A stretch of DNA of 64,000 bases, from contig JALHMS010000019.1 in NCBI GenBank assembly GCA_022843925.1, forward strand, positions 1-64,000. Direction: 5' to 3'. Positions 32,270-44,054 of the stretch are shown piece after piece. The position numbers and the translations under genes are program-made. Source of the DNA: Burkholderiales bacterium (GTDB lineage: Bacteria > Pseudomonadota > Gammaproteobacteria > Burkholderiales > Ga0077523). A model generated the notes under the pieces. It saw nothing but the letters and a program-made list of their open reading frames with translations. It was not told the origin of the DNA and did no database searches. Every line of letters begins with the position of its first letter. The stretch's first letter is position 1.

Positions 32270-34249
<1,980 letters not shown>

Positions 34250-34360
34250 CCGTCGTCGGCGTCATCGGGGCCACTCGGCAGGGCGTCACCCTTCCCTTTT
34301 CGGCCCCGGTTGGCTATCCTCCGCCCCCTTCGGCGGGGGGAGCTCTGTCCCGCGCCGGGC
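34250..34360. other. acs downstream region
   Basis: A GC-rich hairpin (CCCCC-TTCGGCG-GGGGG type, about 34325-34340) follows acs but lacks a T-run. No gene is visible before the repeat island begins at 34361. Confidence 0.3.
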
Positions 34361-34408
34361 CAGCACAGCGGAGAGGTTGATGAGCGGTTTAAGTCGCACG
34401 CCTGGAAA
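34361..34408 (+). pseudogene. Truncated tRNA-Ser 5' half with upstream flank
   Basis: These 48 bases match 34736-34783 with a single T/G difference. They contain the nine flanking bases before tRNA-Ser plus its acceptor 5' strand, D arm, anticodon 5' strand and the anticodon loop through GGAAA. The match then stops inside the anticodon arm and passes into the 74-bp palindromic array. It cannot form a tRNA. It could be an integration or recombination scar, or a remnant of a duplicated tRNA gene. Confidence 0.85.
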
Positions 34409-34702
34409 ACAACCGCGAGGTTGTTTCGGCGAAGGCTAACCTGACCGTCTCGGGCAGGTTAAGCGAAGCGGCCGAAGCCACAACAACCTACCGGTTGTTT
34501 CGGCGAAGGCTAACCTGACCGTCTCGGGCAGGTTAAGCGAAGCGGCCGAAGCCACAACAACCTACCGGTTGTTTCGGCGAAGGCTAACCTGACCGTCTCG
34601 GGCAGGTTAAGCGAAGCGGCCGAAGCCACAACAACCTACCGGTTGTTTCGGCGAAGGCTAACCTGACCGTCTCGGGCAGGTTAAGCGAAGCGGCCGAAGC
34701 CA
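34409..34702. repeat. 74-bp palindromic tandem repeat array, four copies
   Basis: Units begin at 34421, 34495, 34569 and 34643. The first three are identical and the fourth diverges only in its last bases. A partial unit tail (ACAACC) joins the truncated tRNA at 34409. Each unit is itself a long imperfect hairpin: outer GGTTGTT/AACAACC (7 bp), then TCGGC/GCCGA, then an inner perfect stem AACCTG-a-CCG-tct-CGG-g-CAGGTT. Neighbouring units can also pair through AACAACC-tacc-GGTTGTT. No coding potential is evident. Confidence 0.9.
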
Positions 34703-34744
34703 CAGCGTAGCGCTGGCAAAGCAAGACGATGGTCGCAGCACAGC

Positions 34745-34835
34745 GGAGAGGTGGATGAGCGGTTTAAGTCGCACGCCTGGAAAGCGTGTTTAGGTGAATA
34801 ACCTAACGAGGGTTCGAATCCCTCCCTCTCCGCCA
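34745..34835 (+). tRNA. tRNA-Ser (anticodon GGA)
   Basis: The complete 91-base type II tRNA includes an encoded CCA (34833-34835). Acceptor GGAGAGG (34745-34751) pairs with CCTCTCC. The anticodon stem CACGC/GCGTG closes the loop CTGGAAA with anticodon GGA, reading UCC and UCU. A long variable arm (TTTAGGTGAATAACCTAA region) identifies it as Ser. The T arm is GAGGG-TTCGAAT-CCCTC. A duplicated 5' half lies 375 bases upstream and a copy of its 3' end lies 169 bases downstream. Confidence 0.95.
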
Positions 34836-35165
34836 CAAACGAAAAGCGCCCCAGCCATGGGGCGTTTGCGTTTGTGGCGATGGGACGGATGAGAACCGGG
34901 GTTCGACCAGAACGCATGCGTTCTGGGACGCCGCTCGCGGCGATCCCGCAGGGACGGACGGATCGCCCTACGGCGAGACGGCCGCAATCCCTCCCTCTCC
35001 GCCACAAACGAAAAGCGCCCCAGCCGTGGGGCGTTTGCGTTTGTGGCGAAGGGCGGGATGTAGAACCCGGGTTCGACCAGAACGCATGCGTTCTGGGACG
35101 CCGCTCGCGGCGGTCCCGAGACAGCGTCTCGGGATGACGGTATCGCCATAGGGCGATACCCACAC
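34817..35165. repeat. 169-180-bp tandem duplication carrying the tRNA-Ser 3' tail
   Basis: The stretch from the T arm of tRNA-Ser onward (34817-34985) is repeated at 34986-35165. The copy includes the last 19 bases of the tRNA (AATCCCTCCCTCTCCGCCA), the large hairpin, a 20-bp perfect palindrome (34907-34926 and 35077-35096, half-site CCAGAACGCA) and a CGCCGC-tc-GCGGCG hairpin. A decayed third unit begins at 35166 (AATCC). The copies differ at scattered bases, so this duplication is older than the 74-bp array. Confidence 0.8.
34833..34877 (+). terminator. Large hairpin after tRNA-Ser, probable terminator
   Basis: Immediately after the tRNA, CCACAAACG (34833-34841) pairs with CGTTTGTGG (34869-34877), and inside it CGCCCC pairs with GGGGCG, giving one long stem with A/T-rich flanks. 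If the outer stem is left out, the inner stem followed by TTTGCGTTTG resembles an intrinsic terminator. The structure is copied within the downstream repeat at about 35002-35046. Confidence 0.55.
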
Positions 35166-35183
35166 AATCCTTCCCGCCTCATC

Positions 35184-35880
35184 ATCCATTCGCCAAGGCG
35201 CTTCGTGGGTCGAGCATTGCTCGACGCGGCGATGGCGTGAGCACAGCAACGCATCCTGGGACGCGGGCGTCGGGCAAAGCCCGACCTACGGGGCTTGTTT
35301 CCAGCCCCGAGGCATCCAGTCGCCAAGGCGCTTCGTGGGTCGAGCATTGCTCGACGCGGCGATGGCGTGAGCTCAGCAACGCATCCAGGAACGCAGGCGT
35401 CGGGCGAAGCCCGACCCACGGGGCTTGGTTTCAGCCCCGTGGCATCCAGGGGCGAAGGCCCTTCGTGGGTCGAGCACCGCTCGACGCAGCGATCGCATGA
35501 GCTCAGCAACGCATCCAGGAACGCAGGCGTCGGGCGAAGCCCGACCCACGGGGCTTGTTTTCAGCCCCGAGGCATCCAGGGGCGAAGGCCCTTCGTGGGT
35601 CGAGCATCGCTCGACGCAGCGATCGCATGAGCTCAGCAACGCATCCAGGAACGCAGGCGTCGGGCGAAGCCCGACCCACGGGGGTTGTTTCCAGCGTCGA
35701 TGAATCCAGTGACGAGGACCCTTCGTGGGTCGAGCATCGCTCGACGCCGCGTCGGCTTGGGCCCAGCGCCGCATCCAGGAACGCACGCGTCGGGCAAAGC
35801 CCGACCCACGGGGGGTGTCGTCAGCGTCGATGCATCCAGTGGCGCGGACCTCCATGGATCAAGCTGCAGCTCGACCCACG
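35184..35880. repeat. 130-bp tandem repeat array, five copies plus a decayed sixth
   Basis: The landmark CTTCGTGGGTCGAGCA falls at 35201, 35331, 35461, 35591 and 35721, exactly 130 bases apart, with a degraded copy at 35851. Each unit contains two hairpins, GTCGAGC-att-GCTCGAC and GTCGGGC-gaa-GCCCGAC, so most of the unit folds back on itself. Copies are similar but not identical. Open frames on both strands here translate the repeat and are not genes. No spacers separate the units. The same family occurs at 43690-44046. 35881-36153 shows no feature. Confidence 0.9.
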
Positions 35881-43689: not shown

Positions 43690-44046
43690 GCTCATCGCCG
43701 AGGGGTCCGATGGCGAGGGCCCTCCGTGGGTCGAGCATTGCTCGACGCTACGCTGGCTTGGGTGCCTCGGCGAATCCAGGGACGCGGGTGTCGAGCGAAG
43801 CTCGACCCACGGGGTGTGTTTTCAGCGTCGATGCATCCCGTGGCGAGCGCCCTCCGTGGGTCGAGCATTGCTCGACGCTACGCTGGCTTGGGTGCCTCGG
43901 CGAATCCAGGGACGCGGGCGTCGAGCGAAGCTCGACCCACGGGGGGTGTTTTCAGCGTCGATGCATCCCGTGGCGAGCGCCCCTTCGTGGGTCGAGCATC
44001 GCTCGACGCGGCGATGGCTTGGGCGCAGAGGCGAATCCAGCAACGC
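43690..44046. repeat. Second 130-bp repeat cluster, three copies
   Basis: Landmark CC(T)TCGTGGG or CCTCCGTGGG falls near 43721, 43851 and 43982, about 130 bases apart. Outer arms CCGTGGGTCGAGC and GCTCGACCCACGG form a 13-bp inverted repeat, with inner GTCGAGC-gaa-GCTCGAC. The sequence clearly belongs to the same family as 35184-35880 but forms its own sub-type, so copies are more alike within a cluster than between clusters. The array runs to the edge of the VWA gene stop (44055). 43583-43689 holds no feature. Confidence 0.88.
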
Positions 44047-44054
44047 GGGCCTCG

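What the first reader, a model, noticed from the sequence alone, without database searches (positions are those of the whole stretch)
34361..34835. A tRNA-Ser gene interrupted or duplicated at its anticodon loop by a palindromic repeat array
A 48-base copy of the tRNA-Ser(GGA) 5' half and its flank (one mismatch) stops inside the anticodon arm and runs straight into a 74-bp repeat array. The array is followed by an intact tRNA-Ser 375 bases later. Breakage at the anticodon loop is where tyrosine recombinases often cut. But the repeated part is the 5' half, not the 3' half most islands use, and no integrase is present. This could be a relic of an unusual element, or a repeat that uses tRNA genes as a target.
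Basis: partly seen in the sequence, partly recalled or inferred. Interest (0 to 1): 0.7.

Follow-up and report, generated by a model that had tools for sequence, protein, structure and literature searches.

The report
Hairpin element inserted into tRNA-Ser anticodon
One copy of a duplicated serine tRNA gene is split right after its anticodon by a small DNA hairpin repeat; the same hairpin sits in or at the ends of many genes in beta-proteobacteria, often beside a second version of the gene's own ending, which points to an apparently undescribed kind of mobile DNA cassette.

Summary
The copied tRNA 5' half ends exactly after the anticodon (CTGGA|AAGCG in the intact gene). A 74-bp hairpin unit starts there, four copies in tandem. 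In two relatives the last copy is followed by the first bases of the tRNA 3' half (AAGCG). So one tRNA copy was interrupted in its anticodon loop and an intact copy lies downstream. Of 11 genus members with the locus, three are occupied and eight uninterrupted. The hairpin is not tRNA-specific: it is a dispersed Burkholderiales element (69 of 300 sampled genomes) that sits after GA|NAA-type sites, in open frames through recG, murC, mnmG and thiC, in IS-like repeats, and at the 3' ends of glmS, gapA, smpB, trpE, mraY and others. At gene ends the unit carries a copy of the gene's own end plus an arm complementary to the start of that copy. The two gene-end copies differ mostly synonymously (78% against 21% expected), so both evolved as coding C-termini, though only one ends the gene now. 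No tyrosine recombinase was found on the contig, and no mobilising enzyme is consistently present. How it moves is not shown. No description was found in the papers searched, except that identity with the Bordetella repeat BRE could not be tested.

The parts
34361..34406 (+). copy of the tRNA-Ser(GGA) 5' flank (9 bp, 34361-34369) and 5' half (34370-34406), ending after the anticodon GGA
   Evidence: (D6)
34407..34480 (+). hairpin unit 1: arm AAACAACC, loop GCGA, arm GGTTGTTT, core, ending CCA
34481..34554 (+). hairpin unit 2
34555..34628 (+). hairpin unit 3
34629..34702 (+). hairpin unit 4
34703..34735 (+). linker, beginning CAGCGT; the same place reads CCA|AAGCGT in G003 and CCA|AAGCG in G004, the start of the lost tRNA 3' half
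34736..34744 (+). second copy of the 9-bp tRNA 5' flank
34745..34835 (+). intact tRNA-Ser(GGA); unoccupied equivalent of the insertion point is 34781|34782 (CTGGA|AAGCG)

Best explanation
The array is a dispersed, apparently non-autonomous hairpin element of beta-proteobacteria that sits directly after GA|NAA-type sites. Here it sits after the anticodon of one copy of a duplicated tRNA-Ser(GGA) gene. Shown by sequence: the exact junctions, the uninterrupted genes in relatives, the same junction rule at many other genes, and the conserved covarying hairpin. Inferred: the tRNA gene was duplicated before or during the insertion (the only intact copy lies downstream), the 3' half of the interrupted copy was then lost, and the unit amplified to four by tandem duplication. 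Inferred mechanism: the element is used as a single-stranded hairpin. Its first arm pairs with a second arm beside the core, and at gene ends that second arm is templated from the target, for example by snap-back copying or template switching at a replication fork. There the same process, or later recombination with a foreign allele, leaves a unit that carries its own version of the gene end, so the gene stays intact. The mover is unknown.
For: (1) Junctions: CTGGA|AAACAACC in G000 and G003, CTGGA|CAACTTGA in G004; far end GCCA|AAGCGT in G003, GCCA|AAGCG in G004, GCCA|CAGCGT in G000; CTGGA|AAGCG in 8 uninterrupted relatives. (2) Elsewhere: 18 core matches in this genome, 9 of 12 genus members (two of them by one weak match each), 69 of 300 order members. 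(3) Site rule: of 40 distinct contexts with an exact 6-nt arm partner upstream, 29 follow GA, 8 follow CCA (the end of the preceding unit), 3 neither. (4) Covariation: 12 of 19 pairs changed on both sides; score 0.339 against 0.132 shuffled, 0 of 500. The first unit base pairs with the base beside the second arm in 36 of 40. (5) The arm follows the gene-end copy: mean 7.6 of 10 against 4.07 (null maximum 4.93); where the two copies differ, the upstream one fits better in 23 of 31, the downstream in 6, equal in 2. (6) Open reading frames run through it in genes read as recG, murC, mnmG, thiC. (7) Gene-end copies differ synonymously: 230 of 294 changed codons, 78%; random expectation 21%, maximum 30%. 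(8) Occupied and empty forms of the same IS-like repeat.
Against: No genome with a plain tandem tRNA-Ser duplication without insert was seen, so the order of events at the tRNA is not shown. After AAGCG(T) the 3' half of the interrupted copy is missing. The tRNA units are the minimal type (arms AAACAACC/GGTTGTTT), not matched to the tRNA sequence, so target-templated arms are not seen at this site. 82 of 130 units had no exact 6-nt arm partner within 200 nt, so the arm rule was tested on a part. Y1 transposase was not found in 7 of 14 and RVT_1 in 9 of 14 core-carrying genomes, so no mover is identified.
Confidence: 0.75

Rival explanations
1. Plain tandem duplication of tRNA-Ser that later eroded; the 74-bp array grew there by chance and has no link to the break.
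For: A duplication of at least the 9-bp flank and the 5' half did happen; the 3' half of the first copy is largely gone.
Against: The break is exactly at the element's usual GA| junction, and the element's far end meets AAGCG, the next tRNA bases, in G003 and G004. The same core sits after GA in unrelated genes.
Confidence: 0.1
2. A Y1/HUH (RAYT or IS200/IS605-like) transposase moves the hairpin as single-stranded DNA, as for REPs.
For: Strand-asymmetric hairpin, insertion next to a short fixed motif, no target duplication in the empty/filled comparison; Y1_Tnp in 7 of 14 core-carrying genomes.
Against: Not found in 7 of 14, including copy-rich G173, G299 and G406; the consensus lacks the GTAG/CGTC tag named in the title of PMC3733652.
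Confidence: 0.2
3. Reverse-transcriptase-mediated insertion of a structured RNA.
For: Covarying stem-loop; the gene insertions examined are read in the sense orientation of the gene.
Against: RVT_1 in only 5 of 14 core-carrying genomes; no Rfam family at gathering threshold on the array.
Confidence: 0.08
4. Relic of a tyrosine-recombinase island at tRNA-Ser.
For: Break in the anticodon loop; direct repeats flank the insert.
Against: No Phage_integrase match on the contig; the 5' half is repeated; the insert is made of hairpin units that occur at many non-tRNA sites.
Confidence: 0.03
5. The gene-end units spread only by ordinary homologous recombination between species, not as mobile cassettes.
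For: Gene-end copies give homology; the outer two of the three glmS ends are exchanged between G000 and G003.
Against: Does not explain the first insertion, the GA| rule or the arm that matches the gene-end copy.
Confidence: 0.3

Closest known systems
Rickettsia palindromic elements (RPE); seen in passages of PMC2229807 and PMC3733652 and the starts of their abstracts in a listing
   Same: Short palindromic elements, many found in frame inside genes
   Different: Other bacteria; no relation of sequence was tested; gene-end copies with a matching arm were not mentioned in the passages seen
BRE, Betaproteobacterial repeat element of Bordetella (PMC3110155; abstract, passages and section 14 read)
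   Same: Beta-proteobacterial, 75-91 bp in Bordetella, tandem copies, mostly intergenic, some in ORFs
   Different: Reported in Bordetella, Polaromonas, Delftia, Acidovorax and others; none of the 74 stretches hit here bears these names (a strict pattern). Its sequence is only in a figure, so identity could not be tested
REP / RAYT elements (PMC3733652; passages)
   Same: Dispersed hairpins, sometimes inside genes
   Different: No GTAG/CGTC tag in the consensus; Y1 transposase not consistently found; arms vary with the target
Integron gene cassettes with attC hairpins (recalled)
   Same: Tandem units, each ending in a strand-asymmetric hairpin, inserted serially at one point
   Different: No fixed GTTRRRY boxes at the ends (recalled motif); units carry gene ends, not ORFs; integron integrase not tested
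Islands that rebuild a tRNA or gene 3' end on integration (recalled)
   Same: The incoming DNA restores the end of the target gene
   Different: Units of about 74-180 bp, no integrase on the contig, and at this tRNA the 5' part is repeated

Membership tests
Tyrosine-recombinase tRNA island | integrase gene next to the att site | tested here: not met
   Phage_integrase: 8 matches in the genome, none on the window's contig
Tyrosine-recombinase tRNA island | repeat of the tRNA 3' end at the far side | tested here: not met
   the 5' half is repeated around the insert; a 3'-end repeat further downstream goes with another palindrome
REP/RAYT | Y1 transposase (TnpA_REP) in the genome | tested here: inconclusive
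   found in 7 of 14 core-carrying genomes; past presence cannot be excluded
REP/RAYT | GTAG or CGTC tag at the foot of the hairpin | tested here: not met
   consensus of A1 has CGGnGnAGGC...GGCCGnAGCC; A1 was selected by a pattern
Coding palindromic element (RPE-like) | in-frame presence inside conserved genes | tested here: met
   open frames through the element in recG, murC, mnmG, thiC (gene names by my reading of the translations, not by a family search)
RPE of Rickettsia | sequence relation to RPE families | not tested
   no RPE sequence at hand
BRE | sequence identity to the Bordetella repeat | not testable with these tools
   sequence only in a figure of PMC3110155; host list differs
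MITE | terminal inverted repeats of an IS and target-site duplication | tested here: not met
   filled and empty forms show no duplication beyond an ambiguous A; ends vary with the target
Integron cassette array | conserved attC end boxes | tested here: not met
   unit ends follow the target sequence; box motif recalled
Integron cassette array | integron integrase in the genome | not tested
   only the broad Phage_integrase family was searched, in G000 only

The most novel reading that the evidence does not exclude
A class of mobile hairpin cassettes in beta-proteobacteria whose unit is a gene 3' end followed by an arm complementary to the start of that end and a conserved hairpin. The cassette inserts at the matching GA|NAA site of the same gene in another genome, rewrites its C-terminus and stacks in arrays. 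The arm is copied from the target, so each cassette becomes specific to its site.
Probability: 0.3. Interest if true: 0.88.

Novelty: new variant of a known kind. Interest (0 to 1): 0.7.

Why it matters
A hairpin family that enters conserved genes and a tRNA gene of which only one intact copy was found, without destroying them, and that carries or acquires a matching piece of its target, would be a new way for bacterial genes to exchange their ends and for small selfish DNA to survive. The clear junction rule, the empty sites in relatives and the arms that follow the gene-end copy make the question of how short hairpins move testable.

Tried and rejected
A tRNA-specific target was rejected. 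A relation to a described RNA family: nothing on the array at gathering threshold. At E up to 5 the hits on the array itself had E 0.46 or worse, all below gathering; lower E-values (for example sX4, E 0.0005) lie over the intact tRNA. A carrier phage, virus or plasmid: no match (pattern in viral contigs; with the window unit; with one other core against plasmids). An autonomous element flanked by cores: the inverted pair in G195 1.4 kb apart (L219) encloses no ORF of 90 aa or more that I read as a transposase (reading of translations only). A Y1 transposase or reverse transcriptase as common mover: not found in 7 and 9 of 14 genomes.

A reading-frame bias: 42 of 45 gene-end units have the site in the GA|N codon phase. 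By my own grouping of the non-tRNA rows this is 19 of 21 genes, and 65% of GA|NAA sites in long ORFs lie in that phase anyway, so p is about 0.009, which I count as weak support only. For the core copies in RHS-like sequence, translated one base off the frame, so I draw nothing from it.

A first local run of ARAGORN inside a script printed nothing, presumably through wrong arguments; find_trnas was used instead. G005 has tRNA-Ser at two contig ends (C7, C50); the ends overlap in sequence, so I count one locus.

Limits. The patterns fix many core positions, so the invariant columns of A1 are partly imposed. A1 holds 56 of the 81 sequences listed, chosen by me for variety. Searches use only units with a detectable second gene end; pairs with a local alignment score under 18, a late start or fewer than 8 codons were dropped. 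In some searches one row (L001) is the tRNA array and not a gene; one search leaves out the tRNA-locus loci. Rows of one gene in related species are not independent; with one row per gene group (19 groups, a few possibly the same gene) the share is 129 of 165. tRNA scans covered 103 loci, not all that were held.

Full report
What is there. The window belongs to a 5.57-Mb genome (G000, 64 contigs, contig C19). The reported repeat is real: 47 of 48 bases match between 34361-34408 and 34736-34783, the 74-bp array has four units, and the intact tRNA-Ser(GGA) lies at 34745-34835. No second full-length match to it was listed in the genome.

Exact junctions. The copied 5' half ends after the anticodon, CTGGA at 34406. 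The insert begins AAACAACC, so the two extra matching bases are chance. In G003, whose array is split over two contig ends, the last unit ends GCCA and is followed by AAGCGT; in G004 by AAGCG; these are the first bases of the tRNA 3' half. In G000 that position reads CAGCGT. So the insert interrupts CTGGA|AAGCG. Eight relatives (G001, G002, G005, G006, G007, G008, G010, G011) have an uninterrupted gene; in G009 no tRNA match was listed. After AAGCG(T) the interrupted copy does not continue as a tRNA; about 30 bp later the flank and an intact gene begin. G004 has two units of different sequence, about 6.5 kb from acs, so the event is old or happened more than once.

A dispersed element. The same core lies elsewhere in this genome: 18 matches of covariance model R1 at E 0.01, in 9 of 12 genus members, two of which (G009, G011) have a single weak match. 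A strict pattern found 74 stretches in the collection of 84,980 species genomes. The titles that name a group below Proteobacteria are beta-proteobacterial (Rhodocyclaceae, Oxalobacteraceae, Methylophilaceae, Gallionella, Thiobacillus and others); four are titled only Proteobacteria or Pseudomonadota. In a sample of the order 69 of 300 genomes had a match at E 1e-6. In a sample of the class (143 genomes, G000 and at least one other of the order among them) only G000 and one weak match were found. No hits in viral contigs (pattern), phages or plasmids.

Structure. Across 56 sequences the core folds as one long hairpin with GNA internal loops on both sides and a one-sided bulge that contains GCGNAGC. 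Twelve of 19 pairs change on both sides; the covariation score is 0.339 against 0.132 in shuffles (0 of 500 as high) and at most 0.061 when slid. Seven pairs never vary, partly because the search pattern fixed them. That GCGNAGC forms very stable DNA mini-hairpins is recalled, not tested.

Where it sits. Three settings were seen. (a) Inside genes: open frames run through it in genes that I read as recG, murC, mnmG and thiC. (b) Inside IS-like repeats of G195, G173 and G299, where occupied and empty forms can be compared. Empty: AGCGA|GTACCGCG (L234, G299) and AGCGA|GCACCGCG in a related repeat (L233, G199). Occupied: AGCGA|AAACGCAGTTTCGG...CCGAAGCCA|GCACCGC (L220 and others, G195). A second site of the same repeat, CCGAGA|CATA, is empty in L219 and L220 and holds inserts of different length in L222 and L239. 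(c) At gene 3' ends, with the gene end present on both sides of the core: glmS, gapA, smpB, acs, trpE, mraY and others (names from my reading). In the genus, gapA is occupied in G000 and G003 and carries no core in the other 8 of the 10 genomes found. glmS is occupied in G000, G003, G001, G005 and (with a related core) G002; no core was seen in G004, G007, G008, G009 and G010; the G006 stretch printed was not clearly the glmS end, and G011 had no match.

The junction rule. Of 40 distinct contexts in which the arm beside the core has an exact 6-nt partner within 200 nt upstream, 29 begin after GA, 8 after CCA, which is the end of the preceding unit, and 3 after other bases. 82 of 130 units had no such partner; some of these have shorter arms, as in AAACGAAGTTT. 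With arms shuffled between units about 6 partners are found per trial and 23% follow GA. Of 45 gene-end units (one of them the tRNA row), 36 begin after NGA. An independent test, looking for a second copy of the 10 bases after the core, found one in 50 of 134 units against 15 (maximum 20) with shuffled partners. The anticodon loop of tRNA-Ser(GGA) contains such a site.

Gene-end units. The arm beside the core is complementary to the start of the gene-end copy upstream of it: 7.6 of 10 bases against 4.07 for shuffled partners (maximum 4.93). Where the upstream and downstream copies differ, the upstream one fits better in 23 of 31, the downstream one in 6, and 2 are equal. Thus arm and upstream copy mostly belong to one unit. 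The two gene-end copies differ in 294 codons over 46 rows, of which 230 are synonymous (78%; random expectation 21%, maximum of 300 trials 30%); with one row per gene group 129 of 165. A copy made in place and then left untranslated would not be expected to keep this pattern. So I infer that both copies were coding C-termini, probably in different genomes, before they came together. Some pairs are identical (for example gapA in G000), so recent duplication in place occurs too. At glmS the outer two of three copies are exchanged between G000 and G003.

Reading of the tRNA case. The units at the tRNA are of the minimal type: their arms do not match the tRNA. I therefore read the locus as a minimal element inserted at a GA site of a redundant tRNA copy, tandem amplification of the unit, and loss of the 3' half. 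Whether duplication preceded the insertion or came with it is open. No sigma-70-like promoter consensus was found in 34230-35200, so where the intact tRNA is transcribed from is not known.

How it may move. Not shown. The conserved hairpin, the pairing of the first unit base with the base beside the second arm (36 of 40) and the arm that matches the gene-end copy point to a single-stranded intermediate with snap-back or template-switch copying. Neither Y1 transposase (7 of 14) nor reverse transcriptase (5 of 14) is consistently found in carriers. Host replication or recombination functions, or an unrecognised enzyme, remain.

Literature. Searches for the core strings and the peptide gave 0 papers. 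Other searches showed in their listings no description that I recognise as this element, with one reservation: BRE of Bordetella (PMC3110155: abstract, passages and section 14 read), whose sequence I could not compare. Also seen: small mobile repeats (PMC2229807: passages) and tagged REPs (PMC3733652: passages). Most subscription papers are missing from the library, so novelty is provisional.

Noticed in passing
34818-35160: A second, different palindrome family in the T loop: the tRNA-Ser 3' end and its terminator are repeated at 34986 after the junction TTCGA|ATCCC, preceded by an imperfect inverted copy of the tRNA 3' end. The same kind of repeat follows tRNA-Ser(CGA) in this genome (C3, L038) and in G002 (L032).
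   Followed up: partly
35183-35813 and 43711-44054: Two 130-bp tandem arrays; the first contains imperfect inverted pairs of the type CGTGGGTCGAGC...GCTCGACGC / GCGTCGGGC...GCCCGACCCACG.
   Followed up: no
L274 (G000 C23, glmS end), L276 (G002): A related but different core (GGGGCGGAACTCA...TGAGTGGAGACC) occupies the same GA| site at the glmS end.
   Followed up: partly
L206-L209, L212: Core copies inside what looks like RHS/YD-repeat coding sequence, on several contigs of G000 and in G003; frame not established.
   Followed up: no
G004 C1:144400-151150 (L056): About 6.5 kb with other ORFs lies between acs and tRNA-Ser in G004, and the tRNA is inverted relative to acs in G001 and G005, so this neighbourhood rearranges.
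   Followed up: no
L081, L089, L093, L125, L127, L133 (Methylotenera, Methylophilus, Methylophilales and other records): A short-core subfamily (AACCTTTAGGTT), several copies with a similar longer first hairpin.
   Followed up: no
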